A DNA stretch of 64,000 nucleotides, from positions 1 to 64,000 of IMG/VR virus record IMGVR_UViG_3300042451_000707; one strand, given 5' to 3'. This document shows, piece after piece, positions 40,932 to 58,759 of the stretch. A program made the position numbers and the translations under genes. The stretch comes from a virus. Every line of letters starts with the position of its first letter. The stretch's first letter is position 1. Under the pieces are notes generated by a model. It searched no databases, was not told where the DNA came from, and saw only the letters and a program-made list of their open reading frames with translations.

Positions 40932-41709
40932 TAAATGTAAAGAAGAAAAAAATTTATGTGATTTTAATAAATGTTCGAGAAGTAAATTGGGGGTACAATC
41001 TTCATGTAAAGAATGTCGTAGAAAAAATAGAAAAAAAACATTTGAAAAAGATAAAATACGTCATCAGAAATGGAAAACCAATAATAACGATTATGTGAAA
41101 GAATATAACAAAAAGTATTATATTGATAACATTGAAAAAATTAAAGAAACCCAATTAAATTATTACGAAAAAAATAAACAAACTATTAGTAATTGGAGCA
41201 AACATCACTATACCAATAATCGTGAAAAAATTAAGGATAGATGTAAAATCTATAGAATTAAAAATAAAGAAAAAATAAAACTTTACTTCATAGAATACAG
41301 ATTAAATAATCAATTAAAAATTAAAGAAAAAAAGATAAAATTTAAGGAAAAAAATCCAAATTATCATACAGATTATTCTAAAAAACGAAGAAAATTAGAC
41401 ATTAATTACAAATTAACGATAATGGTTAGAGGTAGAGTTAATAAGTTTCTCAAATCAAAAAATATAACAAAAACCAATAAAACATTTGATATCGTTGGTT
41501 GTACTCCCGAATTTCTTAAAGAACATTTAGAACAACAATTCACGGAAGGAATGTCTTGGGATAATCAGGGTAAATGGCACATTGACCACATCATTCCACT
41601 ATCATCAGCAAAAACCGAAGAAGAAATTTATAAACTTTGTCATTATACAAATCTTCAACCACTATGGGCTGAAGATAATTTGAATAAAGGTTGTAAAATA
41701 TTAAATTAA
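40912..41709 (+). CDS. HNH endonuclease (free-standing homing type)
   Basis: This 265-aa protein has an N-terminal zinc-finger-like block (CSKCKEEKNLCDF, then CKECRRK) and a long Lys/Asn-rich helical middle. The C-terminal HNH core contains KWHIDHIIPLSSA and HYTNLQPLWAEDN, with the His/Asn catalytic set. This layout is that of free-standing phage homing endonucleases. It lies on the plus strand beside minus-strand genes and overlaps the RHH gene start. Its stop overlaps the following convergent glycosyltransferase stop by four bases. The coding composition is more A/Lys-rich than the neighbours, consistent with recent arrival. Confidence 0.88.
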   Translation: MEKKICSKCKEEKNLCDFNKCSRSKLGVQSSCKECRRKNRKKTFEKDKIRHQKWKTNNNDYVKEYNKKYYIDNIEKIKETQLNYYEKNKQTISNWSKHHYTNNREKIKDRCKIYRIKNKEKIKLYFIEYRLNNQLKIKEKKIKFKEKNPNYHTDYSKKRRKLDINYKLTIMVRGRVNKFLKSKNITKTNKTFDIVGCTPEFLKEHLEQQFTEGMSWDNQGKWHIDHIIPLSSAKTEEEIYKLCHYTNLQPLWAEDNLNKGCKILN

Positions 41710-43391
41710 GATTCTTTTCTTAATTCTGCAGAATAAAATTCATATCGGTGGTGTTCTATTGGTGTTAATAATAACAATCCAGGGTTTATATTACCTTTTA
41801 CTGTTTCTTGGTAAGAATATGACATGAGGGTTTGTTCATAAGGATGGGCCCATTTAGTTTCTAAATAACACTTATAATTACCTTCTTTTGTTAATACAAT
41901 TGGCCAATTACACAAATAGATTTCACCATTAATATACGGTAACCCTTTATGAGTTTGAATGTTTTTAAATTTAGTTCTTGGTGCATTTGGGTCTAAACCT
42001 TGAATGGGTAAAGTAGGTTTTTCAGGGAAAAGTTCTCTTCTCTTGTCTTGAGGTAGATTATACCATGAAAATTGAATATCGTTCGAACCGTAGAATTCAC
42101 TAAAAGATAATTTTAAAAAATCAAAATTTTCTTTTTTAATAATTTCTAATGATTTCTGATAAAGATTATCAACATATCGATTAAACCCATTTCGACATAC
42201 TTCACCTTTTTTTGGATATAAATTCATATCATCTTCGAACCAATAATAAAAATCTAAATCAGTTTCGTTAAAATGTTCTGCAACAAACACTCTACCCCCA
42301 ACAATTCCTAAATTATCTTTTTTAATGTGTTCAAAACCATATTCTTCACAAAGTTCTTGGTATCTTGGTGTTGTTGTTAAATCAGTTGAATTATCAAGTA
42401 AAAACTTTTTTGGTTTAAGAATAAAGTCCTTATCATATTCCAACATTGACTTAACTAAGGTTTCAAATTGGTTTGGACTATTAAATGTTATCACATAAAG
42501 ACCCACATTATCAATACTTGTTTTTGATGATTTATTTATCTTAACAAACTCTTCATTATATCGTTTAAGTTCCTCAAAAAACGGCCAAACAAGACCATTA
42601 CCTTCAATATCGTACTTGTAAATTAAATTTGGGTAGGTGTGCGTTAATATTGTGAAAAAACATTCATCAGCCCCCATATAACCACTTTTTAAAGTATTTT
42701 CCATAATAGAATAATACAATGTATTAAGTTGATGTATTACATCTTTTTCTCCACCAAAAAAACCTCCACGACAAACATAACCAACATACTCAGTATTACA
42801 ATATTTTGCCATTGCCGTTCTTTCAAATCCATGTATTTCAGTATTACCTTCATATGGATATGCTAAATGAACATATTTTATATCTTTTTGAGACATAAAA
42901 TTACCTAAATTATTTAAAACTAAATCTTTTTGGAAGTACCCTTTATTTACGGTATTTGTTAATCCACCGTCTATCCAATAGAAATACTTACTATTAAATG
43001 GATTAGTAATTGCCGAATCATTTAACATAAACATTTTGGTAAACATCATTGCGTTATACGATTCTAATGCCGCTTGAGGGGATTCTCGTAACCATCCGGC
43101 TTGAGATAACCAATTCTCATTTTTTCTAATTTCTTGAATCTTACTAAAGAAAGGGTTCCAAGTTTCAAAATCACTTACTTCTTTAATGAAAATTCGTGTT
43201 GGTTTATCCGCACGAATTTTTTCAACTTCAGATTTTAATTCGGATGGTATCCAAATACACATTTGAACATCTACCTCTAACATTTCAAAAAAACGTTCTT
43301 TATAGTAATTAAAATCTCTTTTTGCCCAAGAGTTCAAATGTTCTCGACCTAAATCCCAAAGACCGGTAACAATAGTAATATCCGTATTCAT
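41706..43391 (-). CDS. Two-domain glycosyltransferase (HtrL/YibB-like N-term plus GT-A domain)
   Basis: This 561-aa protein appears to have two parts. Residues 1-285 (ITIVTGLWDLGR, then KYFYWIDGGLT and GGFFGGEKDV) resemble HtrL/YibB/WlaTC-type glycosyltransferase-like proteins. Residues 290-561 open with VGLYVITFNSPNQFETLVKS and contain YYWFEDDMNLYP, a GT-A (GT2-like) DxD site. It is the last gene of the seven-gene glycan cassette. It would transfer sugars from nucleotide donors; donor and acceptor are unknown. Confidence 0.75.
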   Translation of the reverse strand: MNTDITIVTGLWDLGREHLNSWAKRDFNYYKERFFEMLEVDVQMCIWIPSELKSEVEKIRADKPTRIFIKEVSDFETWNPFFSKIQEIRKNENWLSQAGWLRESPQAALESYNAMMFTKMFMLNDSAITNPFNSKYFYWIDGGLTNTVNKGYFQKDLVLNNLGNFMSQKDIKYVHLAYPYEGNTEIHGFERTAMAKYCNTEYVGYVCRGGFFGGEKDVIHQLNTLYYSIMENTLKSGYMGADECFFTILTHTYPNLIYKYDIEGNGLVWPFFEELKRYNEEFVKINKSSKTSIDNVGLYVITFNSPNQFETLVKSMLEYDKDFILKPKKFLLDNSTDLTTTPRYQELCEEYGFEHIKKDNLGIVGGRVFVAEHFNETDLDFYYWFEDDMNLYPKKGEVCRNGFNRYVDNLYQKSLEIIKKENFDFLKLSFSEFYGSNDIQFSWYNLPQDKRRELFPEKPTLPIQGLDPNAPRTKFKNIQTHKGLPYINGEIYLCNWPIVLTKEGNYKCYLETKWAHPYEQTLMSYSYQETVKGNINPGLLLLTPIEHHRYEFYSAELRKES

Positions 43392-43400
43392 ATAAATTAT

Positions 43401-44006
43401 TTATTGTTTAATTTTACAAGCCCAAACAACTTCTTTAAAATCCTCTTCCATATGTGGAAATAAATTATTTCTTTCACAAGATTCATTAATATCACTGTCT
43501 TGAATTTCCAACCAATTCCAAATTTTATTATTAATATGTTCTTGGAAGTATGTTTCATCAGAGGCGTAATCGTGAGCCATAATCACATCACCAACTTTTA
43601 GATAGTCAGATAATATTCTAAACTCATTCTTTTTATTACCGCCATCACATAATACTAATGTAACTCCTTCGGATGTAATAATATCAATAACTTCTTGACC
43701 GTTTTCTAACTTATCGTATTGGTGGTTGAAGATATTTTCAACTTTTAATTCAATTTTAGAACCTTCATTAACATAATGTCTCAAATATTTCGGGTCATTA
43801 ACATCATAACTAACCAGTCTTGTTGTTTCCAAACCATTATTATCTAATATATCTCTCAACAATAAAGTTAATCCTCCCGATGATGTTCCAATCTCCAAAA
43901 CCTTGACCGGTTTTAATTCTGTAATTAATTTTGTAAATTTTTCTTCAACTGAAATGTGTTGCATTGTTGTTAAATTTCTATAGACAAAAAATCCTGTAAT
44001 ATTCAT
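43401..44006 (-). CDS. SAM-dependent methyltransferase (class I)
   Basis: This 201-aa protein has a Rossmann motif I, KVLEIGTSSGGLTLLL, then a motif II-like VSYDVND and a motif IV region VTLVLCDGGNKKNEF with MAHDYASDE. This layout is close to sugar or cephalosporin-hydroxylase-type class I methyltransferases. It follows the PLOD-like GT gene by one base in the glycan cassette, so sugar O-methylation is the likely job. There is no transmembrane segment. Confidence 0.75.
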   Translation of the reverse strand: MNITGFFVYRNLTTMQHISVEEKFTKLITELKPVKVLEIGTSSGGLTLLLRDILDNNGLETTRLVSYDVNDPKYLRHYVNEGSKIELKVENIFNHQYDKLENGQEVIDIITSEGVTLVLCDGGNKKNEFRILSDYLKVGDVIMAHDYASDETYFQEHINNKIWNWLEIQDSDINESCERNNLFPHMEEDFKEVVWACKIKQ

Positions 44007-44007
44007 A

Positions 44008-44742
44008 TTATATTTTTTTTATTAAGTTTAACGAAAAACTTGAATTATCGTGTATCAAATACGGTTCGGTGTTAAATTTAGTTTTTATAATTTTATTTTC
44101 AATAGTGTAATAAGATTCATCTAACAACGCGGTTGAGAAAAAATACTCACAATTTGAATCTTTATTTAGTTCTTTTATTTTTAAGTGGTAATATTGCCAA
44201 ACTCCTTGGTCGTCCCAAAAATCCAAATCAACATTCAAACAAATTTCTTCTAACTCTTTAATTATTTCATAAAAAGTGTTTGTCTTGGATATTATTGCTC
44301 CTGAGTTTAAATAGAAAAACTCTTTATTGTCAAGTGATTCACCCATCCATTTGGAAACAGCGTCTAAATACGGCCAACAATTTTTTTCAGTTGAGACTGT
44401 AATATCTTTACCCTCATCAATAAATTTGGTAATCATATCATTAGAACTTCTACTAAATTTAGTATCACTATAATCAATATGTGAAAGATATTCATATTTC
44501 CCTAAAATATTCTCCTCAATAAATTTTCGTAAAAGAAATATTTTTCCGTAAACCAAGTCTCTACGTCTTGTAACTCCAACATTTGGTATAGATTCCATAT
44601 GAAATGGGTCAAATTCGTTTGAAAAATTAACGTAAATGTCATTAACGTCACCATCAAAATTAAATTTTTCTTTTAAATTTTCTTGTGATGGTTTTTCACA
44701 ACCATAACAATAATATGTTGTAATTACTGCGTGTTTTTTCAT
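44008..44742 (-). CDS. PLOD-like glycosyltransferase 1
   Basis: This 244-aa protein has the ends of a lysyl-hydroxylase (PLOD)-type glycosyltransferase domain: a DYSDTKF segment near residue 90, then FYLNSGAIISK and DDQGVWQYYHL, with an EPYLIHDNSS closing. In animals this fold adds glucose to galactosyl-hydroxylysine on collagen. The phage also makes collagen-like fibres, but the acceptor here is unknown. It shares its layout with the PLOD-like gene at 45422-46159, suggesting a duplication. Its start overlaps the stop of the upstream FkbM gene by four bases. Confidence 0.7.
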   Translation of the reverse strand: MKKHAVITTYYCYGCEKPSQENLKEKFNFDGDVNDIYVNFSNEFDPFHMESIPNVGVTRRRDLVYGKIFLLRKFIEENILGKYEYLSHIDYSDTKFSRSSNDMITKFIDEGKDITVSTEKNCWPYLDAVSKWMGESLDNKEFFYLNSGAIISKTNTFYEIIKELEEICLNVDLDFWDDQGVWQYYHLKIKELNKDSNCEYFFSTALLDESYYTIENKIIKTKFNTEPYLIHDNSSFSLNLIKKI

Positions 44743-45419
44743 ACATTTGTTTTTTTAATAAAGTGGTAATCACCATCAGGTCCATTATTAGTAAATAAAC
44801 CAGTTACTAATTCAAAACCCAAAGATTCTATAAAACTAATTGATTCAACATTTAATGGTGCTCCAATATTATATTGACTATGTTGTAATTCAACAATTAG
44901 ATGTTTACAAGTTTTTAAGGTTTCAGACATACCCTTTAATATATCAACCTCACACCCTTGGACATCAATTTTAATTAAGTCAGGTAACTTAAATTTTTTA
45001 TGTTTAACAACAGTGTCTACCGTTGTTGTAATAACTTTTCGCTCGCTGTTTTCTCCATAATATATTTCAGTCGCCCAACTATCTTCTTTATAGTATGAAT
45101 TACCTCCGGGACTTTCATTACTTTGGTAAAATATCAACTCTTTGTTATCAATATCACTTAACACTCCTAAATGATATTCATACCCCGATTCATCATATAA
45201 AAATCCAACTGAATCCATTCCATCAAAAAGATAAAAGGTCGAATTTTCCCAAATCTTTGAAGCTTCTTTAGTCCAGTGTAGTACACAGGAACCAATATCA
45301 TAAATTACTTCCGGTTCAAAATTATATTCTTCTTTTATTTTTTTTAAGTATAAACTATGGCTACTGGGAATTACCGCCATATTCGATAAACTTCTTAATT
45401 TATTTTCTATTTCACTCAT
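44739..45419 (-). CDS. FkbM-family methyltransferase
   Basis: This 226-aa protein has the FkbM pattern: an early VIYDIGSCVLHWTK motif I, a FDG acidic loop, a TTTVDTVV segment, and the diagnostic PDLIKIDVQGCEVDILKG. FkbM-type enzymes O-methylate sugars and other natural-product hydroxyls. It lies between two PLOD-like GT genes, with a four-base overlap downstream. Sugar methylation on the phage glycan is the natural inference. Confidence 0.85.
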   Translation of the reverse strand: MSEIENKLRSLSNMAVIPSSHSLYLKKIKEEYNFEPEVIYDIGSCVLHWTKEASKIWENSTFYLFDGMDSVGFLYDESGYEYHLGVLSDIDNKELIFYQSNESPGGNSYYKEDSWATEIYYGENSERKVITTTVDTVVKHKKFKLPDLIKIDVQGCEVDILKGMSETLKTCKHLIVELQHSQYNIGAPLNVESISFIESLGFELVTGLFTNNGPDGDYHFIKKTNV

Positions 45420-45421
45420 AA

Positions 45422-46159
45422 CTATATTAAATTAAATCCTTCTATAATTCTTGGACTTCCGTAATTCCATCCATTATCGTGTACAAACATTGGTAAGGTG
45501 TTTGTTATTTTGTGTCTTAACCTACCATTTTCATTTTCAAACCAACTTCTTGATGTTAAATAAGTACTTAAAAAATGATTACAAGTTTCGTCTAACTTAA
45601 TTTTTGGAATTAAATTGTTGATGTAGTAATATGTGTATATTCCTTGGTCGCCGCCAAAATTTTTATAATTTAGAGGTAAGACATTATCTATTACGGTTTC
45701 CAATAAATTAAGATACAATTCTTTTGTGGTAACAATTAGACCTGAATTTAAGTAAAAACTATTCTTTAAATTCCATTCCGAATATGACGATACAGGACTC
45801 CAAGAAGAATTATCATTAGGATATTTATTCATCTCCGATGAAAAAATAATACCATCAGTATATTTTAGGTTGTTAATATTATCTAAACAAACAACATCAT
45901 TGGTATCACAATATACGATAACATCGTCATCAACCATTTTTAATTTATCCTTTAATAAGAATATTTTATATAAAATAAATTCAAACTGATATGAGTAACG
46001 ACTTTCAAACTCTTTCTCAAGGTCTATATAATCATGTCTATTAAAATGTACGTTGATAAAGTCACCTTCAACATTATTTTTGATGAATGATTTATATAAT
46101 ATCGTATTTTTATAATCAAATTGAGGTTCGTAAGACCAAGTAATTGAAACTAATTTCAT
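45422..46159 (-). CDS. PLOD-like glycosyltransferase 2
   Basis: This gene starts at ATG 46159 (245 aa), one base after the GT25-like stop. An upstream ATG would add 14 residues but lies inside the preceding gene. KLVSITWSYEPQFD opens the fold. VIVYCDTNDVV is a DxD-like donor site, FYLNSGLIVT matches the second PLOD-like motif, GGDQGIYTYYY the third, and MFVHDNGWN the closing one. The order matches the PLOD-like gene at 44008. The product is a predicted cytoplasmic sugar transferase of the glycan cassette. Confidence 0.75.
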   Translation of the reverse strand: MKLVSITWSYEPQFDYKNTILYKSFIKNNVEGDFINVHFNRHDYIDLEKEFESRYSYQFEFILYKIFLLKDKLKMVDDDVIVYCDTNDVVCLDNINNLKYTDGIIFSSEMNKYPNDNSSWSPVSSYSEWNLKNSFYLNSGLIVTTKELYLNLLETVIDNVLPLNYKNFGGDQGIYTYYYINNLIPKIKLDETCNHFLSTYLTSRSWFENENGRLRHKITNTLPMFVHDNGWNYGSPRIIEGFNLI

Positions 46160-46160
46160 T

Positions 46161-46871
46161 TTATTTTTCGATTGGAAATCCTTGTTTAATATATTCTTCA
46201 TAATTCACATCAAAGAACCATAAATCACTATATGACGAGTATTGGGTTGTTAATCCATATTTATAACACATCGCTTTATATATAGTAGGTAAAACATCTA
46301 ATGGTTGGTCTAAATTATAATAATCGTATTTATCAGGGTGAATTACCACATCAACACCGTATGGGGCTAACGACAATAATTCATCAGGTGTAACTGGTTG
46401 TCCAAAAAAATTAGTTTCACTAAAATTATCAATAATAAATTTACAAAAATCACGTTTAATTAAATATGATTGTGCGTATGATACCGATGATACTTGAAAA
46501 CAATTATTCTTATCTTTAATTGGGTCTCGTCGATTTCTACAACCTAACCAAAAAACATCCCATTCGGTATTATTGATATCATTGAAAATTTCATCACTTT
46601 TTTCTTTTAGTACATCCAAAAATAAACAATCGTCTTCTAATATTAGTAAGGTTTCAAAATCCGTCTCTAACAATTTTTCCATCAATTGAAGGTGACTTCT
46701 TTTACAATTTAATGTGTTTGATTCGTATTCTGAAAACGCGGAATGTCTTTCAACACCGGTTATATTAAAATCTTTTAATTGTGTCTCTAATTTAACTTTC
46801 CTATCTTCACGTCTATCAAGATTTATATAAAATCCAATGTCCGCAATTTTAACATTATTTATCTCAACCAT
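46161..46871 (-). CDS. Glycosyltransferase family 25
   Basis: This 236-aa protein opens with GFYINLDRREDR, the GT25 (LPS biosynthesis) signature, continues ERHSAFSEYES, and has the donor-site LLILEDDCLF and SYAQSYLIKRDF segment. GT25 members include bacterial LPS galactosyltransferases and animal collagen galactosyltransferases. It is packed one base from each neighbour in the cassette, so it is expressed with them. Confidence 0.9.
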   Translation of the reverse strand: MVEINNVKIADIGFYINLDRREDRKVKLETQLKDFNITGVERHSAFSEYESNTLNCKRSHLQLMEKLLETDFETLLILEDDCLFLDVLKEKSDEIFNDINNTEWDVFWLGCRNRRDPIKDKNNCFQVSSVSYAQSYLIKRDFCKFIIDNFSETNFFGQPVTPDELLSLAPYGVDVVIHPDKYDYYNLDQPLDVLPTIYKAMCYKYGLTTQYSSYSDLWFFDVNYEEYIKQGFPIEK

Positions 46872-46872
46872 T

Positions 46873-48138
46873 TTAACTTACGTGATTATGTGTTAATTGT
46901 CCTGTTATTCTTTCACACCATCCTTTTGACTCCGAATGAGGCCATACAACCCAGTGTGTTGGTATTTCATCAGTTTGAAATTCTCTCCAAACTTTACAAT
47001 ACTTATCCGGGTCTCTCATAAATCCCGCAATTTCATTTTTATCCGCATCTTTACGATATAATGTTTTATCGTCTTTACCATGGAACGCAACAACCCAAAA
47101 ATCATAATCCGTTTCAGGTACTTGGGAATATCCAATATCAATACAATGTTTAAACATCATACAGAAACTATCTCTCCATTCTTGTTCCGTTTCAAAATTA
47201 TATGGATTTGGTGGATAATTTTTATCTAAAGTATATTTGTCAATTGCTCGTTTTTCAAAAAGAATTCCGGCATATTTTTCATAATCGGTTAAGGTTCTAA
47301 CCGGCCCGAATCCATAAGGCCCGTCATGACCTTCTTGTTTTTCACCATCCATACCAAATAACTTTCTATTTGTTAAATGCGAATGACTATTTTTTTCACC
47401 CCAAGTTCGGTCATCATCCCATTGTTTTGTTCTTCCTTTACGAGTATATTCGTGATAAACAACAGGAATGTGTGGGTGGAATAAATCATACCCCCAAGTG
47501 TAAGCTCGAGCCGCAATAGAAATTTCTTCTCCGTGGAAGTAATATTCAGGATTATGTTGAACTTCATGTGAAAATTGACCTAAAGTAAAACAGAAGTGTG
47601 CGGAATAAAATCTTGCGGTTACCGGTTTTTTTAATTCTCTCCATCCCGGAATTGTTTCAGGTAAGAAGAACACCGCGCCCTCAGGAATAAATCTATCAAA
47701 AGACATTCTCCAAGCATCTTGGGCTCTACCTGCCGGGTCATTTTCAGGGTCAAAAGAAGGGACATAACCTGTAAGTAAAGGTTTCTTATGACCATCTTTT
47801 TGTAATCCTTTAATCATCTTGATTAGGATATCGTCCCAATCTTTAACAAATCTCATATGAGAATCTATCTGTAGAGTATATTCCTCACCACCATATAATT
47901 GTTGAACTTGATGTCTTGCCCAACAAACACCTTTGGCGTCTTGATAAGGAATATCTAAAATCTTAAATCTTTTATCTTGTCTGAATTCATCTAAATTATC
48001 AAATCCATCTTCAGGACTAAATTGTCTTGCAATACCTAACACAAGGTTTTTTGGTTTTTTTGCGTTTGCCAACATATCTTTAATTGTTGGAACTAATTGA
48101 GGGTCTCGGTAAGATGCTATTTGAACAAATATTTTCAT
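46873..48138 (-). CDS. GlcNAc-type glycosyltransferase
   Basis: This 421-aa protein matches the GlcNAc transferase family (PF11397-type, related to the eukaryotic Skp1 hydroxyproline GlcNAc transferase). Visible segments are IFVQIASYRDPQLVPTI at the start, then QDAKGVCWARH, the donor site LQIDSHMRFVKDWD and FHGEEISIAARAYTWG. This layout is complete. It is the first gene of the glycan cassette after the adhesin gene, from which it is separated by a strong terminator and an A/T-rich promoter-like stretch. A possible acceptor is the phage's own Thr/Pro-rich fibres. Confidence 0.88.
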   Translation of the reverse strand: MKIFVQIASYRDPQLVPTIKDMLANAKKPKNLVLGIARQFSPEDGFDNLDEFRQDKRFKILDIPYQDAKGVCWARHQVQQLYGGEEYTLQIDSHMRFVKDWDDILIKMIKGLQKDGHKKPLLTGYVPSFDPENDPAGRAQDAWRMSFDRFIPEGAVFFLPETIPGWRELKKPVTARFYSAHFCFTLGQFSHEVQHNPEYYFHGEEISIAARAYTWGYDLFHPHIPVVYHEYTRKGRTKQWDDDRTWGEKNSHSHLTNRKLFGMDGEKQEGHDGPYGFGPVRTLTDYEKYAGILFEKRAIDKYTLDKNYPPNPYNFETEQEWRDSFCMMFKHCIDIGYSQVPETDYDFWVVAFHGKDDKTLYRKDADKNEIAGFMRDPDKYCKVWREFQTDEIPTHWVVWPHSESKGWCERITGQLTHNHVS

Positions 48139-48156: not shown

Positions 48157-48190
48157 AAAAATAAAAAACCCTCCACAAAGGTGAAGGGTT
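48157..48190 (-). terminator. Intrinsic terminator after the mucin-like adhesin gene
   Basis: A 10-bp stem (48167-48176 with 48181-48190) contains one G-U pair that pairs only in minus-strand RNA, and a long U-rich tail follows. It is near-identical to the terminator at 49976-50010. A weaker promoter-like TATTTTTATATATAAAAT follows within its tail. Confidence 0.9.
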
Positions 48191-48216: not shown

Positions 48217-49947
48217 TTAATATGGAGAATCAATAGAATATACCACAGGTGTGGTGTTTACCGTAATTGAAGTTTGAGTTCCTGATGAATCGGTAAATAC
48301 TGACGCCGCATCAATACAATTCATTAATAATACGGTTTCAGAGTCTGCGGTTAAACTTGTAGTAGGTCTAGGTATTGTTGGGTTGGTAGGATTTAAATAT
48401 GTTCTACCTACATTAACTTTAAGATTTGTTAATTTGGCGTTTGATATATTAATACCTTGGGTGTTAAATATTAAATCAGTTGTACCTGTATAATCTCTAG
48501 TATCGGATTGTAGGTTATTAGTACTTGCAGTACCATCCATCCAAACACTTTCAACACCACCTTGTCTTGATATTGCAAAATATGTCCAAGTATCAGGAAC
48601 TAAAGTGGTCGGTAATTGATATGTAATTGATGGTGCTGATATGTTATTAAGTATCACATTAAGAGAATTTGAATCTAATATAATTCCTAATGAGTCATCA
48701 CCTGATGTTGTTGAACCTAAAATTGGTTCTAAAGTTGAAGGATTGTTTGATGTTTTAAACCAAAATTCAATTGAGAAGTCATTTGAATCAACAATAACCC
48801 CTGGGGACATTATTAAATCACCACTAGACGCCATAGAACCTGGTCCAACTGGTGTCGGTGTTATTGTTGGTGTTACAGTATTAGTCGGTGTTATTGTCGG
48901 TGTTACGGTATTGGTTGGTGTATTGGTTGGTGTTTCGGTAGGAGTCGGTGTATTTGTAGGAGTTTCAGTATTCGTTGGTGTTGGTGTATTTGTTGGAGTT
49001 TCAGTTATTGTTGGGGTAGGTGTTGGGGTAGGAGTAGGTTGTATTCCTATTTGAAGATTAAACTCACCTTGATTATTTCCGGTTCCCCAAGTCCAACTAT
49101 ATGTTCCGGTTGTTAATCCCAAACTAGATAAAGTTTCATTCAAATATGTTGCGGTTCCACTGATATTTGTTCCGGATACATAACCAGTTGGAATTAATAT
49201 TGTTCTTACTCCTGCTAAAGGTGATACACCAAACATACCACCAGTTCCTGAATCAGCAGTTGAACTACCACCACTTCCAAAATTAAGTGGTCCGGATAAT
49301 GTTGCACCACTATATTGTGTTATATTTGAGGCTGCCGCACCTATGGTTAGTTGTCCCACATTTGGGGTAATCAATGATTGGGTACCTCCAAAATTAAAGG
49401 TTGACGTTAAATCGTTTATATTAAAGGTTCCTGTTCCCGACATTACAACATTTGAACCCACTTCAGTTATTGTCGCGTTAAATACCGATGGAACACCTTG
49501 AGTTGGGGTTATTGTAGGTGTAGGTGTGTTTGTAGAAGTAGGTGTAGGAGTAACTGGAGTTGTTGTAGGTGTAGGGGTTATTGTAGGGGTTGGAGTATTT
49601 GTTGGTGTAATACTTGGTGTTGGTGTATTCGTTGATGTTGGTGTATTGGTTGGTGTTATTGTAGGGGTTAGAGTATTCGTTGGTGTAACACTTGGTGTTG
49701 GAGTATTCGTTGGTGTGTTCGACGGGGTAGGGGTCGGAGCCAATGGAAATGAACCATAGTTAATTACCGATACACTTGATTGAAATAATTGAGCGATAGA
49801 ATATGTACCATCAACAACCCAAATATTTTTAGTTTCATTTGGATTAAGATTTACTTGGTATTCCCACATAAAATCATCACATCTTTGGTAATTAAAATTT
49901 ACTGCGGTGGTACCGGTATTTGTTAATGAATATTTACTACAAGCCAT
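48217..49947 (-). CDS. Mucin-like fibre/adhesin with LamG-like C-terminus
   Basis: This 576-aa protein starts at ATG 49947 (an upstream ATG adds 12 residues but overlaps the promoter-like motif). Residues 1-72 form a small head module ([12 protein letters not shown]) shared with the gene at 50204. A Thr/Pro stalk of TPTPTNT repeats follows, then a beta-rich domain (about 155-300), a second TPT stalk, and a LamG/concanavalin-like domain of about 200 residues ([11 protein letters not shown], then [13 protein letters not shown]) that could bind sugars. It is flanked by near-identical terminators. Extracellular display on the virion is inferred. The Thr-rich stalks are good O-glycosylation targets, next to the glycan cassette. 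Confidence 0.8.
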
Positions 49948-50010: not shown

Positions 50011-50032
50011 ATAATATTATTGAGTATTTCGA

Positions 50033-50203: not shown

Positions 50204-50533
50204 TTAAGGTGTTGGGGTCGGTGTCGGTGTACTCGTCGTGGTAACACTTGGTGTTGGTGTATTTGTTGGTGTAACACTTGGTGTCGGTGTATTCGTTGGT
50301 GTAACACTTGGTGTCGGTGTTGGTTCAAATGGGAATGTTCCATTATTAACCAACGAAATATTTGATTGAAATAATTGTGCAATTGAATAACTACCATTTA
50401 TTACCCAAATATTTTTAGTTTCACTTGGGTCAAGATTTACTTGATATTCCCACATAAGGTCATCACATCTTTGATAATTAAAATTCACTGATGTTGTTCC
50501 TGTATTTGTTAAAGTATATTTACTACAAGCCAT
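50204..50533 (-). CDS. Truncated mucin-like fibre paralogue (head plus stalk)
   Basis: This 109-aa protein begins MACSKYTLTNTG and is highly similar over its first 73 residues to the adhesin at 48217. The TPT stalk then ends at a TAA. Downstream in-frame sequence still looks like the C-terminal domain, so this is probably a recently shortened copy. It has the full TATTTATAATAAAA motif upstream. A stalk without tip could still be made and glycosylated; function is unknown. Confidence 0.65.
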   Translation of the reverse strand: MACSKYTLTNTGTTSVNFNYQRCDDLMWEYQVNLDPSETKNIWVINGSYSIAQLFQSNISLVNNGTFPFEPTPTPSVTPTNTPTPSVTPTNTPTPSVTTTSTPTPTPTP

Positions 50534-50547
50534 ATTTTATTTTTTAT

Positions 50548-50555
50548 TATAAATA
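50548..50555 (-). promoter_or_regulatory. TATTTATA promoter-like motif upstream of the truncated paralogue
   Basis: The minus strand reads CTATTTATAATAAAAAATAA, a full match to the extended consensus, 14 nt before the ATG. Confidence 0.6.
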
Positions 50556-50595
50556 GTCTAGTTGATTGAATTTGTTTTTTATTATATTGTTTTTA

Positions 50596-53081: not shown

Positions 53082-55472
53082 TTAAATTTCTGTTATGTTT
53101 AATCTTGTTGAATAGTTATCTTGAACACCAAATATAAATGGACTTACAGTCCAGTTTCCAGCAGTTGTATTTACATACACATAACATCTAATAGTGTCAT
53201 TTGGGGCTAGTGTGAATGTACATGATAATCTTTGTAGTGCATTTGTATTATTTATAGGATTTTGAGTACTTGATGCTATTCTATTTGTACTAGTAGGAGT
53301 TCCATTTCTAGAAAGCCATATAGTATGTTCAGTTAGAGTTGTAGATGAATTTACTGCTGACTGATAATCAAAAGTAAATGTTCTTGTATAGTTAGCTGTA
53401 TTTGTAAATACTCCACCTGCTTGTGTAAGATTTTGGATACTGTTTGTATCTGTAATGTCCCACTCTACTATCTGTGTAGTATTAGCTCCAAATCCACCTA
53501 CTTGACTTCTTCTATATTCTCTTACTGGTGGTGTTGTTCCCGCATTTGGAGTAACATTAATGAAAGTCCCTGTAGGTGCACTAACGGTTGTTCCACTATG
53601 AGTCCAAGTAGTACCACTAGTTACTTGAATGTGGTAAGTTGAGTTATCAATAAAACCTGCATTAAAGAATCCATAAACTTGGTATTGAGTATTACTTATT
53701 TGAACTATTCTAATTGTTTCCGGGGTAGTGAAAGTTGGACCTAATGCTCGGTTTGTGTATGCTAATGCGTCCCCAAAGAAATTACCTCCTGTTACTCCTG
53801 GTTGGGAACTAATACCATTAGATGTTTTGAAGTAAAGTTCTGTAACTTGGTTTTGATTAACTTGAGCATTATATCCGGCATGTGATACTATTCTTGAATA
53901 TAAAGTAGCGCCTCGTTGTACTGTATCCCATGTTCCTAAAAGTACCCAAGTAACTGTCGTACTACCCGGTAAGTTAAATACTTGACTTGGAAGTCCACTA
54001 ATTTGATTCCAAGTACTTCCTGTTGTCCCAACACTAAAAGTTGTACCTGAAGATATATTATTATTCGCTTGGTAAATTATACCATTATTATTTACCACCA
54101 AAGTACCTTGACTATAAGTCTTACCACTTGAGTATGTCGCATTAGCATCGGCGGCCAATTGTGTCCAAGTAGCACCTGTTGTACCAAGACTAAAAGTTGT
54201 ACCTGAGGATATATTATTATTTGCTCTATAAATTATACCGTTATTAGTTACAGTAGTTCCTGATACGTAAGAATTTGATAAACCCCAAGTTTGAATTCTC
54301 GCATTACTATCACCTGAAGTACCTGAAGTCCCACTAGTTCCTGATGAACCACTAGTTCCTGATGAACCACTAGTTCCTGAAGTCCCACTAGTTCCTGATG
54401 AACCACGTGTACCTGAAGTACCTGACGAACCACTTGAACCTGACGAACCACTTGAACCTGACGAACCACTTGAACCTGAAGTGCCTGATGGTTGTGCGGC
54501 AATTATAAATAAAATTTCACTATTATTTATAAATTGAGCACTTCCATCGATTAAACCAACGGGTAGTACCCAATAACTACCGGCAGGTGTTGGAAACCCA
54601 AGTAACCATTTTTGATATATCTCATTATCAGTTTTATCTTGAATAATTAGAATCGAATCTTGTAGTAAGAAATTCAAAAATACATTTATGTTGTTACCCG
54701 TTCCATCAACATTACTTATCTGTATTTTTGATGAATTTATTTGTGTTGAATTATCCCAAGTAATGTATCCATTTCCAGGGTTTCCCGAAAAAATGGTAGT
54801 CTTCGCCTGATAGTCAAATATCACATTTGAAACTCCGTTAAGACCTGAAGTCCCACTAGTTCCTGATGAACCACTTGAACCTGATGAACCTGATGTTCCA
54901 CTTGAACCTGATGTTCCTGAAGAACCACTAGTTCCTGAAGAACCACTAGTTCCTGATGAACCACTTGTTCCTGATAAACCTGAAGATACAACCGCTCTAC
55001 CAGCAGTGCTCGTTGAGAAAGTTACAACTACGGTTCCACTATTAACAACGTTTATTGATGATGGAATAATTTGGTTTCCGTTACTTTCGTAAACTTGAAC
55101 CAAAGGTGTTTCAGTTGTGAATGGATGATTTAAAGTCCAAGTTGTTCCACCTGTTATTATATAGGTTTGTGTTGAACCTGTTGCAGATGTTCCCGATGTA
55201 CCACTTGTTCCTGATGAGCCTGTCATAGCACTATAAACATTTTTCCATTGACTACCATCGTTTAACCATTCTTCAGTTACCGTACCTCCACTAGTTCCTC
55301 CACTAGTAACTAAAACGATGTCACCTGATTTCCCATTAGAGGGAAATGTATTTGTATTTTCTTGGTAATACACTGAAGTAAATCCGGAATTGGCAGCCGT
55401 TAATAAATCATTTAAGGTGGTTCTAACATCTAAACCACTCTCGCCATTTTGAATTAAATTATATTGACTCAT
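53082..55472 (-). CDS. Collagen-like tail fibre protein with CBM5/12-like modules
   Basis: This 796-aa protein has long Gly-x-x tracts (GSSGTSG repeats) in two main blocks around residues 170-215 and 330-390, the phage collagen-like pattern that would trimerise. Between them lies a beta-rich domain. Two adjacent CBM5/12-like modules follow (about 395-490), encoded by an 82-bp direct repeat. The C-terminal 300 residues are beta-rich, ending TRLNITEI. It has no Lys or Pro in the Gly-x-x tracts, so collagen-type hydroxylysine sites are lacking. It is coupled to the fibre gene at 50596. Confidence 0.8.
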   Translation of the reverse strand: MSQYNLIQNGESGLDVRTTLNDLLTAANSGFTSVYYQENTNTFPSNGKSGDIVLVTSGGTSGGTVTEEWLNDGSQWKNVYSAMTGSSGTSGTSGTSATGSTQTYIITGGTTWTLNHPFTTETPLVQVYESNGNQIIPSSINVVNSGTVVVTFSTSTAGRAVVSSGLSGTSGSSGTSGSSGTSGSSGTSGSSGTSGSSGSSGSSGTSGTSGLNGVSNVIFDYQAKTTIFSGNPGNGYITWDNSTQINSSKIQISNVDGTGNNINVFLNFLLQDSILIIQDKTDNEIYQKWLLGFPTPAGSYWVLPVGLIDGSAQFINNSEILFIIAAQPSGTSGSSGSSGSSGSSGSSGSSGTSGTRGSSGTSGTSGTSGSSGTSGSSGTSGTSGTSGDSNARIQTWGLSNSYVSGTTVTNNGIIYRANNNISSGTTFSLGTTGATWTQLAADANATYSSGKTYSQGTLVVNNNGIIYQANNNISSGTTFSVGTTGSTWNQISGLPSQVFNLPGSTTVTWVLLGTWDTVQRGATLYSRIVSHAGYNAQVNQNQVTELYFKTSNGISSQPGVTGGNFFGDALAYTNRALGPTFTTPETIRIVQISNTQYQVYGFFNAGFIDNSTYHIQVTSGTTWTHSGTTVSAPTGTFINVTPNAGTTPPVREYRRSQVGGFGANTTQIVEWDITDTNSIQNLTQAGGVFTNTANYTRTFTFDYQSAVNSSTTLTEHTIWLSRNGTPTSTNRIASSTQNPINNTNALQRLSCTFTLAPNDTIRCYVYVNTTAGNWTVSPFIFGVQDNYSTRLNITEI
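54009..54090. repeat. 82-bp direct repeat, copy 1 (CBM-like module)
   Basis: Aligns without gaps to 54165-54246 with scattered substitutions. Both copies are in frame and encode NNNISSGTTFS-type module ends, so the repeat is a duplicated protein module. Confidence 0.75.
54165..54246. repeat. 82-bp direct repeat, copy 2 (CBM-like module)
   Basis: Second copy of the repeat at 54009-54090, in the same frame. A more diverged relative lies in the neighbouring fibre gene. Confidence 0.75.
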
Positions 55473-55497: not shown

Positions 55498-55944
55498 TTA
55501 ATCAACCCAAACTTCAGTATCTTCCCAAAGACCCAAGTCATCCCAAAATCCTGTAGATAAAATCCATGTTGATGGTTCCCACGAAGTCCAATATCCATTA
55601 GTTTCCAACCAAATTTTGGCATCAAGAGGTGTTGGGAATTGTTGTTTTGTAATACTCTCCGCCAAAGTCAAAAACTGCTCGTTGTTCTTACCGTTAGTTC
55701 TATTAAACCCTACCGTCCCCAATATTTCAACAGGTGTTGGTTGTAAAGGTTCTCCTTCAGGTGTTACATTAGTCTTAGCAATAACATAACCCAAATCTTC
55801 GTCAGGGCCCATCCACCATATCAATCCACCATATCCACTTGAATAGGGTAAATCTTCTTGAGTCCCAACAATTAAATTCCCGTACGATTCCGTTCCGGGT
55901 AATGTTGTTCCTGTATAAAATCCAAAAGGTCTTGATGTACTCAT
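55498..55944 (-). CDS. Hypothetical Trp-rich structural protein
   Basis: This 148-aa protein of unknown family has no clear fold match. It is rich in Trp and Gly. The end repeats a short pattern (WLETNGYWTSWEPSTWILS, then GFWDDLGLWEDTEVW), and a helix (FLTLAESITKQQF) sits in the middle. It has no signal peptide. It begins a sub-block of the fibre region, with a TATTTATA motif 39 nt upstream, and leads 25 nt into the collagen-like fibre gene. Fibre assembly or connection to the baseplate is possible. Confidence 0.65.
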   Translation of the reverse strand: MSTSRPFGFYTGTTLPGTESYGNLIVGTQEDLPYSSGYGGLIWWMGPDEDLGYVIAKTNVTPEGEPLQPTPVEILGTVGFNRTNGKNNEQFLTLAESITKQQFPTPLDAKIWLETNGYWTSWEPSTWILSTGFWDDLGLWEDTEVWVD

Positions 55945-56020: not shown

Positions 56021-56272
56021 TTATATTGGTGTTGGAGTCGGTGTTGGAGTGATTGTTGGTGTCGGAGTTGGACTTTGTTCCACAACAGATAAACTATAGT
56101 TATAGTCATATAATGGAACATAACAATTGTAAGTTCCGTAGAAATAATCTGTAATATATTCAAAAGGAAATACTTGAGTTCCTAAATCAATAGTCCCTCC
56201 GGATTGAGGATAATAAACTACATTAGTAGTTAAACCACTTAAATTATTACTTAAAATTCTTATTCCTGACAT
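56021..56272 (-). CDS. Small stalk protein ending in TPTPT repeats
   Basis: This 83-aa protein has a head of about 65 residues rich in Tyr and Gly (VVYYPQSGG, FYGTYNCYVPLYDYNYS). The stalk [17 protein letters not shown] ends abruptly at the stop. It resembles the head-plus-stalk layout of the genes at 48217, 50204 and 56292, without a tip domain. A promoter-like motif lies three bases before the ATG. A minimal fibre or a shortened form is possible. Confidence 0.6.
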   Translation of the reverse strand: MSGIRILSNNLSGLTTNVVYYPQSGGTIDLGTQVFPFEYITDYFYGTYNCYVPLYDYNYSLSVVEQSPTPTPTITPTPTPTPI

Positions 56273-56283: not shown

Positions 56284-56291
56284 TTTAATTT

Positions 56292-56861
56292 TTAACATAC
56301 TCCTACGTTTAGAACTAAAGTTCCGCTTATTTGAATGAACCTCGCACCATTTGAAATGGTAAAGTTGGCGTTTATTGGTGGTATCGTCAATGACGAATTA
56401 CCAAATACATTATCTCCCGGAACTAAAAGTCCAAAAGGTTTAGTTGTATATATTATAACATTTGAAGGATTTGAAAACATATTAATGGATTCACAAACAT
56501 TTTGATAATACCCTCCAGTCCATAAACTATATGTGTAAATAATAAGTGGAGTAGCACTCGGTGTTGGAGTAGGTGTTGGTGTAACTGGTGTTGGAGTAGG
56601 TGTTGGTGTAACTGGTGTTGGAGTAGGTGTTGGTGTTGATGTCGGTGTTGGTGTATTTGACGGACATAACCCCATAAATACAACATCAAGTGGTGCACCA
56701 TATTCCTCAACGATTACATTTTTCGCACAAAAATAACTACTTTGTAATGGTTGAATTGGAGTTATATTAATGGTATCAGTACATCCAGTCCATCTGTAAT
56801 ATCCTTCTTGGACATTATTATAATTTGTTATCCTAAAATAGTTACAATCCGTAATATACAT
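56292..56861 (-). CDS. Mucin-like small fibre with C-terminal domain
   Basis: This 189-aa protein has a Cys-containing head (1-68: DCNYFRITNYNNVQEGYYRW), a TPTPT stalk (about 70-105, with VTPTPTPTP triplets), and a C-terminal domain (IIYTYSLWTGGYYQNVC, ending FIQISGTLVLNVGVC). The last domain is the intact relative of the broken one at 50033. It starts three bases after the stop of the 631-aa gene, so the two are expressed together. Likely a virion surface fibre. Confidence 0.65.
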   Translation of the reverse strand: MYITDCNYFRITNYNNVQEGYYRWTGCTDTINITPIQPLQSSYFCAKNVIVEEYGAPLDVVFMGLCPSNTPTPTSTPTPTPTPVTPTPTPTPVTPTPTPTPSATPLIIYTYSLWTGGYYQNVCESINMFSNPSNVIIYTTKPFGLLVPGDNVFGNSSLTIPPINANFTISNGARFIQISGTLVLNVGVC

Positions 56862-56863
56862 TC

Positions 56864-58759
56864 TTATATTATTTGGTAATTTAAATCATTCGCCGGTATT
56901 ATAATTCTACAATTAGGGCAATCCGGATTTAACAAATTGTATTTATCTTTTAATATTTTGAAATTGTGTTTGATTTGCGCACCATTTAATGGTTCCGTAT
57001 ACATTCTAAATGAACTAATATCGCCAATCATGCTACCACCAAAATATTCTTCCAATTTAATATTGGTCGTCAAACCTGAATATATCGTGTTATTCAAATC
57101 ATGCGTGGTTAAACATTCTGGGTCTTGTTGATATTTCAAATCATTTAACGATGAAGGACATCCGCCCGAAAAAGTTAAATTATCGTGAAGTCCTTGTGTT
57201 CCCCCACCGATTGAAATATTATAAGAAACTCCAATTTGTTTTTCTTTTTCAACATTTAACAATCTTGGAATGATTTCTTCAAAGTTTTCAACAACCATAA
57301 ATAATTTTCCGTTCACATAAAACTTAAGGGTTCCTAATCTATATTTTTGTTCTTCAGTCCACATATCCGTAAATGTGACAACCTCTGTTGATGCAGGGTC
57401 ATAATCTTTCTCACGAGTAATTGGAGGTTCAATTAAACTTACACTTCTACCTTCCAGTGTTGCAAAATAAACATCTTTAACCAATAACCCCAACCCACCT
57501 TTAATTCCTAAATCACAAGTATCCAACCATTGGTTTCTTTCAAAAACGGCATCAATTTGGGCCCAATGTTCAACATTGGAATATGTTGTTCCAGAACAAT
57601 CGTCAAAAATACCTCTTGACGAACACCATTCGGTTACCGATGTTCCGGTAACATATGTTAATCCTGTTGAACAAGTTCCTGTTGTTTCACATCCTCCTGT
57701 AATCCTATATGTTTTAACACATAATCTTGGACTTCCCGTATCACCACTTAATCTTAATGATAATGCGTTTGAAACCTCATCGTATAATGGGTCTTTTTCA
57801 GGGTATTGTGCTTTCGTGTTACATTCACATGGACATCCACAAAGACAAGTCGTTATGGTTCCTCCTGATGGTTGATAAACTTGAAGGCATTGTGATGATG
57901 TATTCGCACTACTTGCACAACCACAGGTGTGCATACAAGTTAATCCTGATGTTACTCTTGTATAACCCGAATCTTGTTTTGGATGACCGTCGGCATAATG
58001 ATAAAATTTATTTTCGGCTCTCGCCCCCATATAAAAGAATGTTCCCTTATTTTCAGGATATCTCTCATTCAATCCAACTGAAGTATTTCCGGTCCAACGA
58101 TATCTTAACATAATTTCTGTTGTCCAACCCAAACTTGGTCTTTGAGGGAACACTTGGTAATCATAACCCGCTAATTTATAAAATCCTTGAAAAAATCCTC
58201 CGTTTAATTTTGCAACATATCCAATATCTCCTCCAACATTCGTATATGATAAATCATAGGTATAAGAATTATCATTCCACAATCTATTTTCAGTTGTGGT
58301 AAATCCGGTAATAGGATGTAATTTCATTCTCCTATCATATTTGTATCTACTAAATTTGTCCGTAATATCGGTATATAACCCTGTTGTCGTTTGAATGGTT
58401 TCTCCCGACATATTTTGAACCAATCCGTTATCTATTCCCGTCAATCCAACATCACATAAATCAGTAACAATTGGACAAAAATTTGGGTCTGTATTCGTTG
58501 GATTCCAATAATTTTCCGAAACAATCGTATCCGCACTAAAAACACAAACCGAAGTTTGGCATAATGTAGTACCACTACTATTGAAATTAAATTTGAACGG
58601 CATTCTATTACCATCCTCTTCTCCAATCAATAATGGTGAAAAAATAACTTCTTGGTCGTAGTCTTTCTCATCTGAAGCCAAACATAAATCCGTGACCTCA
58701 TTAACTGGTTTTAGACCAAATCTCCTAAAATTATACTGATTAATATTTTGATATGCCAT
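56864..58759 (-). CDS. Cys-rich LamG-like virion structural protein
   Basis: This 631-aa protein has an early Cys block (LCLASDEKDYD, TLCQTSVCVF), a middle beta-rich part (GYVAKLNGGFFQGFYKLAGY, TEIMLRYRW), a Cys cluster (LTCMHTCGCASS, then CLCGCPCECN) that could bind metal or form disulfides, and a LamG-like stretch near the end (LGTLKFYVNGKLFMVVENF, then IGDISSFRMYTEPL). It is the first gene of the fibre block, with a promoter-like motif upstream, and is divergent from the small plus-strand genes. It probably carries or connects fibres. Confidence 0.75.
   Translation of the reverse strand: MAYQNINQYNFRRFGLKPVNEVTDLCLASDEKDYDQEVIFSPLLIGEEDGNRMPFKFNFNSSGTTLCQTSVCVFSADTIVSENYWNPTNTDPNFCPIVTDLCDVGLTGIDNGLVQNMSGETIQTTTGLYTDITDKFSRYKYDRRMKLHPITGFTTTENRLWNDNSYTYDLSYTNVGGDIGYVAKLNGGFFQGFYKLAGYDYQVFPQRPSLGWTTEIMLRYRWTGNTSVGLNERYPENKGTFFYMGARAENKFYHYADGHPKQDSGYTRVTSGLTCMHTCGCASSANTSSQCLQVYQPSGGTITTCLCGCPCECNTKAQYPEKDPLYDEVSNALSLRLSGDTGSPRLCVKTYRITGGCETTGTCSTGLTYVTGTSVTEWCSSRGIFDDCSGTTYSNVEHWAQIDAVFERNQWLDTCDLGIKGGLGLLVKDVYFATLEGRSVSLIEPPITREKDYDPASTEVVTFTDMWTEEQKYRLGTLKFYVNGKLFMVVENFEEIIPRLLNVEKEKQIGVSYNISIGGGTQGLHDNLTFSGGCPSSLNDLKYQQDPECLTTHDLNNTIYSGLTTNIKLEEYFGGSMIGDISSFRMYTEPLNGAQIKHNFKILKDKYNLLNPDCPNCRIIIPANDLNYQII

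What the first reader, a model, noticed from the sequence alone, without database searches (positions are those of the whole stretch)
41706..58759. Glycosylation cassette next to mucin-like and collagen-like fibre genes
Seen: seven packed genes (GlcNAc-type GT, GT25, two PLOD-like GTs, FkbM and class I methyltransferases, a two-domain GT) lie directly downstream of fibre genes with Thr/Pro-rich stalks and Gly-x-x repeats. Known: GT25, PLOD-like and PF11397 enzymes modify collagen or hydroxyproline proteins in eukaryotes, and Thr-rich stalks are typical O-glycan carriers. Inference: the phage builds a methylated glycan on its own fibres, perhaps to shield them or help adsorption. The collagen-like tracts have no Lys or Pro, so Thr/Ser are the likelier sites.
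Basis: partly seen in the sequence, partly recalled or inferred. Interest (0 to 1): 0.66.

Follow-up and report, generated by a model that had tools for sequence, protein, structure and literature searches.

The report
Phage mucin-type stalk glycosylation cassette
A large freshwater phage carries a set of sugar-adding enzymes, led by one from the family that starts mucin sugar chains in protists, beside genes for threonine-proline-rich stalks that are its likely targets; the same enzyme sits beside similar tails in bacterial secretion needles.

Summary
In detail: seven tightly packed genes (41706-48138, minus strand) follow fibre-like genes with Thr-Pro stalks. A conserved terminator lies between them, so they are neighbours rather than one simple operon.

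The first gene is a GT60 (PF11397) enzyme with an invariant DxH motif. Its predicted fold is closest to the polypeptide GalNAc-transferases that start mucin O-glycans. It is 85-94% conserved in 80 phage relatives; the last gene (HtrL_YibB plus GT-A-like) is also constant, while the genes between are swapped wholesale. I read this as a fixed initiator with interchangeable glycan extension.

The acceptor is very probably the Thr-Pro tract:
- 61/62 relatives have one directly upstream; 0/856 other ORFs do.
- 8/100 viral loci chosen only for Thr-Pro repeats carry GT60; 0/232 control loci do.
- In T6SS clusters with GT60, 10/11 VgrG spikes have Ser/Thr-Pro tails; 0/28 VgrGs from GT60-less genomes do.
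- eCIS loci and probable Tat-exported proteins show the same pairing.

XacN1, which encodes a homologous cassette, has published virion glycoproteins.

No glycan was observed here. Genome-level co-occurrence in Burkholderiaceae was negative. The biological role is inference.

The parts
46873..48138 (-). GT60/PF11397 polypeptide O-GlcNAc-transferase-like enzyme (proposed initiator)
   Evidence: PF11397 224.5 bits; DSH (DxH), GEE and HEYTRKGR invariant in 83 phage homologues; AF2 pLDDT 91, top 19 PDB fold matches all polypeptide GalNAc-Ts
46161..46871 (-). GT25-family glycosyltransferase (variable middle gene)
   Evidence: PF01755 31.7 bits; 28-34% to the middle gene of the commonest cassette
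45422..46201 (-). PLOD-like glycosyltransferase 1 (variable middle gene)
   Evidence: PF25342 44.8 bits
44739..45419 (-). FkbM-type methyltransferase (variable middle gene)
   Evidence: PF05050 59.6 bits
44008..44742 (-). PLOD-like glycosyltransferase 2 (variable middle gene)
   Evidence: PF25342 30.4 bits
43401..44006 (-). class I SAM methyltransferase (variable middle gene)
   Evidence: PF13578 27.1 bits
41706..43391 (-). HtrL_YibB domain plus GT-A-like C-terminal domain (conserved closing gene of the cassette)
   Evidence: PF09612 56.3 bits, residues 4-258; EDDM motif conserved, C-domain partly modelled; found with GT60 in phages, XacN1 and bacteria
48167..48190 (-). intrinsic terminator between stalk1 and the GT60 gene
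   Evidence: 10-pair stem then T run; similar hairpin in 65 of 77 relatives
48217..49947 (-). stalk1: N-terminal domain, two Thr-Pro tracts, LamG-like C-terminus; proposed main acceptor
   Evidence: tracts at residues 72-151 and 303-368 with 37 and 31 Thr (numbering of the 577-aa translation from 49950); Laminin_G_3
50204..50533 (-). stalk2: paralogous N-terminal domain plus Thr-Pro tract, truncated by an in-frame TAA
50596..53070 (-). fibre-like protein, 824 aa, Thr/Ser/Gly rich
   Evidence: composition; only weak PHROG matches
53082..55472 (-). fibre-like protein, 796 aa, with two Gly-X-X (collagen-like) tracts lacking Lys and Pro
   Evidence: tracts at 165-215 and 330-389; tail-fibre PHROG matches that rest on the repeats
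55498..55944 (-). small ORF of the fibre cluster, 148 aa, no known family
56021..56272 (-). 83-aa protein ending in a Thr-Pro tract
56292..56861 (-). stalk3: Thr-Pro tract (residues 67-102) between N- and C-terminal domains
   Evidence: C-terminal domain conserved in relatives
56864..58759 (-). 631-aa conserved first gene of the fibre cluster; longer homologues in many relatives carry Thr-Pro tracts

Best explanation
This is a phage-encoded, cytoplasmic, mucin-type O-glycosylation system. During virion production the soluble GT60 enzyme (46873-48138) transfers a first sugar, probably alpha-GlcNAc from host UDP-GlcNAc, to Thr (or Ser) in the disordered Thr-Pro tracts of the neighbouring stalk proteins. 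The enzymes of the exchangeable middle (here GT25, two PLOD-like GTs and two methyltransferases) extend and methylate the chain, and the conserved HtrL_YibB-GT protein probably adds or completes a common unit. The result would be bottle-brush-like stalks between a virion anchor domain and a binding head. Shown: gene content, family membership, motifs, predicted fold, synteny, the constant-ends/variable-middle pattern and statistical linkage to Ser/Thr-Pro tracts. Inferred: the sugar, the acceptor residues, the order of steps, incorporation into virions and the benefit (stiff extended stalks, protease protection, and changeable glycans that escape recognition).
For: (1) GT60 membership: PF11397 at 224.5 bits. 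DSH motif invariant in 83 phage homologues; DxH in place of DxD is described for GT27 and GT60, which share polypeptide Ser/Thr O-glycosylation (PMC7185993). (2) The GT60 enzyme TcOGNT1 of T. cruzi makes GlcNAc-alpha-O-Thr on mucin-like proteins (PMC9472816). (3) The AF2 model (pLDDT 91) has polypeptide GalNAc-transferases as its top 19 PDB matches, E 8e-10. (4) 61/62 phage relatives have a Thr-Pro ORF just upstream; 0/856 other ORFs of the same loci do. (5) Viral loci picked only by a (TP)5 DNA pattern: 8 of 120 carry GT60, all 8 among the 100 with the repeat in frame; 0 of 232 (GS)5/(AG)5 loci; p=5.5e-5. (6) T6SS VgrG spikes beside GT60: 10/11 have Ser/Thr-Pro repeat tails of different repeat units, vs 0/28 VgrGs of GT60-less genomes, p=1.7e-8. 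(7) eCIS baseplate-like proteins directly upstream of GT60 carry Thr-Pro tracts, and non-CIS bacterial neighbours are Ser/Thr-Pro proteins with twin-arginine N-termini. (8) XacN1, with GT60 (46%), a carbamoyltransferase and the YibB-GT, has at least two virion glycoproteins reported (PMC5852040). (9) No transmembrane segment in any cassette protein, which fits soluble cytoplasmic enzymes.
Against: No glycan has been observed on these stalks, and the XacN1 glycoproteins were not identified in the text read here. Most Thr-Pro tracts in viral contigs have no GT60 nearby (92 of 100), and neighbours of such tracts are not generally rich in glycosyltransferases. In Burkholderiaceae, GT60 and (TP)6 tracts do not co-occur genome-wide: 49/150 genomes have tracts, 4/150 have GT60, one has both. 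Relatives are not independent (several contigs are near-identical; the GT60-linked VgrGs are one clade). One GT60 phage locus (L098) shows no Thr-Pro tract within 10 kb. That the stalks are virion proteins rests on architecture and position, not proteomics.
Confidence: 0.7

Rival explanations
1. The cassette modifies host surface polysaccharide (O-antigen or capsule), to exclude other phages or change receptors, and lies beside the fibre genes only because both belong to a host-recognition island.
For: Pelagimyophages have tail fibres and glycosyltransferases in one hypervariable 'host recognition cluster', read by the authors as host O-chain modification (PMC7029224). GT25 and HtrL_YibB are annotated near LPS functions. 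Rapid swapping of the middle genes resembles O-antigen loci.
Against: No membrane protein, flippase, polymerase or undecaprenyl-linked enzyme in the cassette and no transmembrane segment. The most conserved enzyme belongs to a polypeptide O-glycosyltransferase family. The same enzyme sits beside Ser/Thr-Pro tails in T6SS, eCIS and Tat-type proteins.
Confidence: 0.1
2. The cassette glycosylates phage DNA on a hydroxymethylated base.
For: Phage multi-GT clusters that hypermodify DNA are known (Pyle et al. 2024, cited in PMC12619734). The dnapol gene lies 1.5 kb downstream in the window and in relatives.
Against: T4-type alpha-GT (PF11440) was not found in 13 records, although that control rang nowhere, so it is weak. 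The thymidylate-synthase homologues inspected in larger relatives, XacN1 and RAS14 keep the dUMP-type Asn rather than the Asp of dCMP hydroxymethylase, though 5hmU synthesis is not excluded. The GT60 fold and linkages point to peptide acceptors.
Confidence: 0.07
3. A Skp1-like pathway: Pro in the Thr-Pro tracts is hydroxylated and GT60 adds alpha-GlcNAc to hydroxyproline.
For: Dictyostelium and Toxoplasma Gnt1 are GT60 enzymes acting on hydroxyproline (PMC6939170). The tracts are rich in Pro. 2OG-Fe oxygenases occur in several larger relatives.
Against: No PF13640 oxygenase in this 66 kb record or in XacN1/RAS14, and where present in the long relatives they lie about 30 kb or more from the cassette. 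The record is a fragment, so absence is weak.
Confidence: 0.08
4. The cassette glycosylates virion proteins, but the acceptor is another domain (LamG-like heads, the Ser/Thr-rich Gly-X-X fibre, capsid or tail tube), and the Thr-Pro tract is only a linker.
For: Most viral Thr-Pro tracts lack GT60. The Gly-X-X protein is 31% Thr+Ser. Mycobacteriophages glycosylate capsid and tail tube (as described in PMC12619734).
Against: The Thr-Pro tract is the feature shared by phage, T6SS, eCIS and Tat-type neighbours; the Gly-X-X protein and LamG head are not.
Confidence: 0.15

Closest known systems
Trypanosoma cruzi TcOGNT1/2 (GT60) mucin-type O-GlcNAc system
   Same: GT60 initiating enzyme; Thr-rich mucin-like acceptors with later extension (PMC9472816)
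   Different: There a Golgi enzyme on GPI-anchored mucins; here a soluble phage enzyme beside virion-like stalks, with a swappable extension cassette
Serine-rich repeat glycoprotein (SRRP) loci, GtfA/GtfB plus 2-10 accessory GTs
   Same: Conserved cytosolic initiator, variable number of extension GTs, acceptor adhesin encoded next door, low-complexity Ser/Thr repeats (PMC6973325, PMC5207161)
   Different: GtfA/B is an unrelated two-protein enzyme; acceptors are exported by SecA2/Y2; here the acceptor is a phage stalk and no secretion genes are present
Mycobacteriophage virion glycosylation (Freeman et al. 2023)
   Same: Phage-encoded GTs decorate the phage's own structural proteins
   Different: Acceptors there are C-termini of capsid and tail tube (known here only through PMC12619734); no Thr-Pro stalks or exchangeable middle described there
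Xanthomonas phage XacN1 ORF334-ORF330 (with Stenotrophomonas RAS14/CM1)
   Same: GT60, variable middle with carbamoyltransferase, then YibB-GT; Thr-Pro tracts in nearby ORF325; at least two virion glycoproteins reported (PMC5852040)
   Different: 43-46% identical GT60, different DNA polymerase, different middle genes, and the tract-bearing giant protein lies on the opposite strand
Skp1 Gnt1 pathway (Dictyostelium, Toxoplasma)
   Same: GT60 enzyme followed by extension GTs
   Different: Acceptor is hydroxyproline; no hydroxylase found near this cassette

Membership tests
CAZy GT60 / Pfam PF11397 | Profile match over the whole domain above the curated cut-off | tested here: met
   224.5 bits vs 21 over two stretches spanning nearly the whole 352-position profile
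CAZy GT60 / Pfam PF11397 | DxH in place of DxD, with conserved acidic and C-terminal His motifs of a GT-A enzyme | tested here: met
   D92-S93-H94, G203-E204-E205 and H229 invariant in 83 phage homologues; D92/H94, E205 and H229 invariant in bacterial homologues too
CAZy GT60 / Pfam PF11397 | Fold like the related polypeptide GalNAc-transferases (GT27) | tested here: met
   Top 19 Foldseek hits, E 8e-10; TM-score only 0.45-0.55 over the full length, catalytic-domain match TMt 0.62
CAZy GT60 / Pfam PF11397 | UDP-GlcNAc:polypeptide alpha-GlcNAc transfer to Thr or hydroxyproline | not testable with these tools
   needs enzymology
SRRP-type locus | Acceptor gene adjacent to a conserved initiator plus variable accessory GTs | tested here: met
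   GT60 median 89% identity vs 28-41% for matched middle genes; 15 different middle arrangements in 80 loci
SRRP-type locus | GtfA/GtfB initiator complex and accessory Sec genes | tested here: not met
   none among the cassette's Pfam matches; so it works like SRRP loci but is not one
Skp1 Gnt1 hydroxyproline pathway | Prolyl hydroxylase supplying the acceptor | tested here: not met
   no PF13640 match in the 66 kb record, nor in XacN1/RAS14; the record is a fragment
Phage DNA glucosylation | dCMP hydroxymethylase plus T4-type DNA glycosyltransferase | tested here: inconclusive
   PF00303 homologues inspected keep the dUMP-type Asn; none in the window record; PF11440 absent but its control did not ring
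Gtr-type O-antigen modification | Membrane-bound GtrA/GtrB/Gtr proteins | tested here: not met
   no Gtr family match and no transmembrane segment in cassette proteins

The most novel reading that the evidence does not exclude
GT60 enzymes define a general prokaryotic mucin-type O-glycosylation system for contractile injection machines: jumbo-phage stalks, T6SS VgrG spike tails and eCIS baseplate proteins all carry disordered Ser/Thr-Pro tracts that a neighbouring cytosolic GT60 decorates, with a swappable cassette setting the glycan in phages.
Probability: 0.45. Interest if true: 0.85.

Novelty: new variant of a known kind. Interest (0 to 1): 0.68.

Why it matters
Mucin-type O-glycosylation with a GT60 initiator is studied in protists. 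A phage version with a fixed initiator, an adjacent Thr-Pro acceptor and an interchangeable extension module would be a compact, testable glyco-diversification system, present in at least 506 viral stretches. It would explain a common annotation puzzle (several glycosyltransferases beside phage fibres, usually read as DNA or LPS modification) and predict glycosylated spike tails in some T6SS and eCIS machines. The soluble GT60 and simple Thr-Pro acceptors could also be useful for making mucin-like glycoproteins in E. coli.

Tried and rejected
Genome-level co-occurrence of GT60 and (TP)6 tracts in 150 Burkholderiaceae genomes: negative, so only local linkage is claimed. Pfam survey of 142 neighbours of viral Thr-Pro tracts: no general glycosyltransferase enrichment beyond GT60, GT2 and carbamoyltransferase singles. 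Sequence search of PDB with GT60 and YibB-GT profiles: no relative. AF2 of the YibB-GT: pLDDT 66, too poor for a fold search. Hydroxyproline pathway, DNA glycosylation and LPS modification were considered and ranked lower (see rivals). Collagen-type Hyl/Hyp glycosylation rejected: no Lys or Pro in the Gly-X-X tracts and no hydroxylase nearby. Identity of this phage with the 'moraphages' (freshwater, Bacteroidota hosts, four core GT orthogroups; PMC12619734) is possible but could not be tested.
Full report
What is there. The window is 64 kb of a 66,384-bp IMG/VR virus record. It encodes a contractile-tailed phage: tail sheath, tail tube, baseplate hub, family B DNA polymerase, ribonucleotide reductase, DnaB helicase and UvsX-like recombinase. 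Close relatives lie on contigs up to 321 kb, so it is probably a jumbo phage. The one reservation is the second domain of the last gene, which has no profile match and is GT-A-like only by motif and a low-confidence model. Directly upstream are four ORFs with Thr-Pro tracts and one with Gly-X-X tracts lacking Lys and Pro.

A correction. The last stalk gene and the first cassette gene are separated by an intrinsic terminator at 48190-48167. A similar hairpin sits in that place in 65 of 77 relatives. The cassette therefore appears to be its own transcription unit next to the stalk genes.

The pattern across relatives. At least 506 viral stretches encode a close relative of the first gene; the best 80 were read. 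The order is constant: 631-aa gene, Thr-Pro stalks, GT60, variable genes, YibB-GT, a small ORF, DNA polymerase. GT60 is as conserved as the polymerase (median 89% against 85%) and the YibB-GT is intermediate (52%), while middle genes that match at all are 28-41% identical. In 80 loci the middle holds 15 different arrangements drawn from about 34 families, the commonest being GT25-like plus a family without a Pfam match. Families in the middle include GT2, GT7-C, GT10, GT11, GT25, PLOD-like and RXYLT1-like transferases, FkbM and other methyltransferases and, in XacN1-like phages, a carbamoyltransferase. Most cassette genes abut or overlap (98% of gaps are 20 bp or less), and no cassette protein of this window has a transmembrane segment. 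Constant ends with an exchangeable middle is what one expects of a fixed first step, a fixed common step and changeable chain extension. That reading is inference.

What the first enzyme is. It matches PF11397 across nearly the whole profile. Its DSH motif is a DxH, which in fold-A glycosyltransferases replaces DxD in GT27 and GT60, families described as sharing polypeptide Ser/Thr O-glycosylation (PMC7185993). DSH, GEE and HEYTRKGR are invariant in 83 phage homologues. The AlphaFold2 model (pLDDT 91) has polypeptide GalNAc-transferases as its first 19 PDB matches, although full-length TM-scores are only about 0.5 because the C-terminal domains differ. Characterised GT60 enzymes act on Thr of T. 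cruzi mucins (PMC9472816) and on hydroxyproline of Skp1 (PMC6939170). No PF13640 hydroxylase occurs in this record, so Thr or Ser is the likelier acceptor.

Tests of the acceptor. (a) 61 of 62 phage relatives with enough upstream sequence have a Thr-Pro ORF just before GT60; none of 856 other ORFs in these loci does. Many of these contigs are near-duplicates, so the count overstates independence. (b) Choosing viral contigs only by a (TP)5 DNA pattern gave 120 loci; 8 carry GT60, all among the 100 in which the repeat is translated as Thr-Pro. Loci chosen by (GS)5 or (AG)5 gave 0 of 232 (p=5.5e-5). (c) In 74 bacterial loci with GT60, strict Thr-Pro ORFs make up 12 of 525 ORFs within 4 kb and 0 of 434 beyond (p=7.5e-4). 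(d) About two dozen of the 80 bacterial loci match T6SS proteins (a few of these may be eCIS). Their VgrG spikes end in long tails built from different Ser/Thr-Pro repeats ((TP)n, (TEPPP)n, (PPSEE)n, (PSTPE)n, (ETPD)n) in 10 of 11 cases, while none of 28 homologous VgrGs from genomes of the same family without GT60 does (p=1.7e-8). These VgrGs form one clade, but the repeat units differ, which suggests that the composition is what is kept. (e) In eCIS loci the baseplate-like protein directly before GT60 has a Thr-Pro tract (L162, L163). (f) Outside such machines, neighbours in L118, L125, L138 and L160 are Ser/Thr-Pro-rich proteins with twin-arginine N-termini. That would suit a protein modified in the cytoplasm before export; this is inference.

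External support. Xanthomonas phage XacN1 and Stenotrophomonas phages RAS14 and CM1 carry GT60 at 43-46% identity. In XacN1, RAS14 and most IMG/VR relatives of XacN1 it is followed by variable genes and the YibB-GT. The XacN1 authors report at least two virion glycoproteins and suggested their two glycosyltransferases as the cause (PMC5852040). XacN1 ORF325, a 3,314-aa protein after baseplate wedge genes, has Thr-Pro tracts near its C-terminus. Which XacN1 proteins are glycosylated is not stated in the text available here.

Negative results and limits. Thr-Pro tracts are common without GT60: 92 of 100 viral loci and most Burkholderiaceae genomes that have them (49 of 150 with tracts, 4 with GT60, one overlap). 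One GT60 phage locus has no tract in reach (L098). GT60 therefore predicts a nearby Ser/Thr-Pro tract much better than a tract predicts GT60. No experiment shows the glycan, the linkage or the role, and the virion location of the stalks is inferred.

Verdict. It works like the SRRP adhesin loci of Gram-positive bacteria but shares none of their defining genes. I rate it a new variant of a known kind, with a wider reading (a glycosylation system of contractile injection machines) that the evidence does not exclude.

Noticed in passing
L140, L144, L147, L148, L152-L155, L158, L159, L168: GT60 genes sit inside Burkholderiaceae T6SS clusters; the VgrG spikes there end in long Ser/Thr-Pro repeat tails absent from VgrGs of GT60-less genomes.
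   Followed up: yes
L162, L163, L157, L169: GT60 genes lie in eCIS-like clusters of Alphaproteobacteria, directly after a baseplate-like protein with a Thr-Pro tract in L162 and L163.
   Followed up: partly
L181, L187, L185, L195, L179, L133: In Yersinia, Siccibacter, Morganella, Tatumella and a Neisseriaceae genome, GT60 follows TssF, TssG, an ImpA_N-domain protein (identified by Pfam in L181) and a fimbrial-domain or similar protein in the T6SS operon; acceptor there not identified.
   Followed up: partly
window 50020-50533 (-): stalk2 is interrupted by two in-frame TAA codons (after the Thr-Pro tract and 20 codons later), after which the frame continues with tail-like sequence ending GEVIAVAGFC; probably a decayed copy of stalk1, recoding not excluded.
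   Followed up: partly
window 40912-41709 (+): An HNH-endonuclease-like ORF is inserted antisense at the downstream edge of the cassette; some relatives have it there, others between stalk and GT60 (L039, L080) or not at all.
   Followed up: partly
window 49983-50010 and 48167-48190: Near-identical terminator hairpins (CCCTTCAC...GTGGAGGG) follow both stalk2 and stalk1.
   Followed up: partly
window 61497-62705 (+): A further glycosyltransferase (GT1-like, PHROG 7162), 71-85% conserved, lies outside the cassette next to an exonuclease gene in a divergent cluster.
   Followed up: no
window 27234-30473 (-): The tail sheath protein is 1,079 aa, with only residues about 862-1077 matching known sheaths; a very large N-terminal extension.
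   Followed up: no
window 10269-17552 and 17865-22901 (-): Two giant proteins (2,427 and 1,678 aa) with no PHROG match, between the replication genes and the tail genes.
   Followed up: no
upstream of several genes, e.g. 50545-50560, 40685-40705, 22905-22925 (-): A TATTTATAA-like AT-rich motif recurs 10-40 bp before starts of structural genes, reminiscent of T4-type late promoters; not tested statistically.
   Followed up: no
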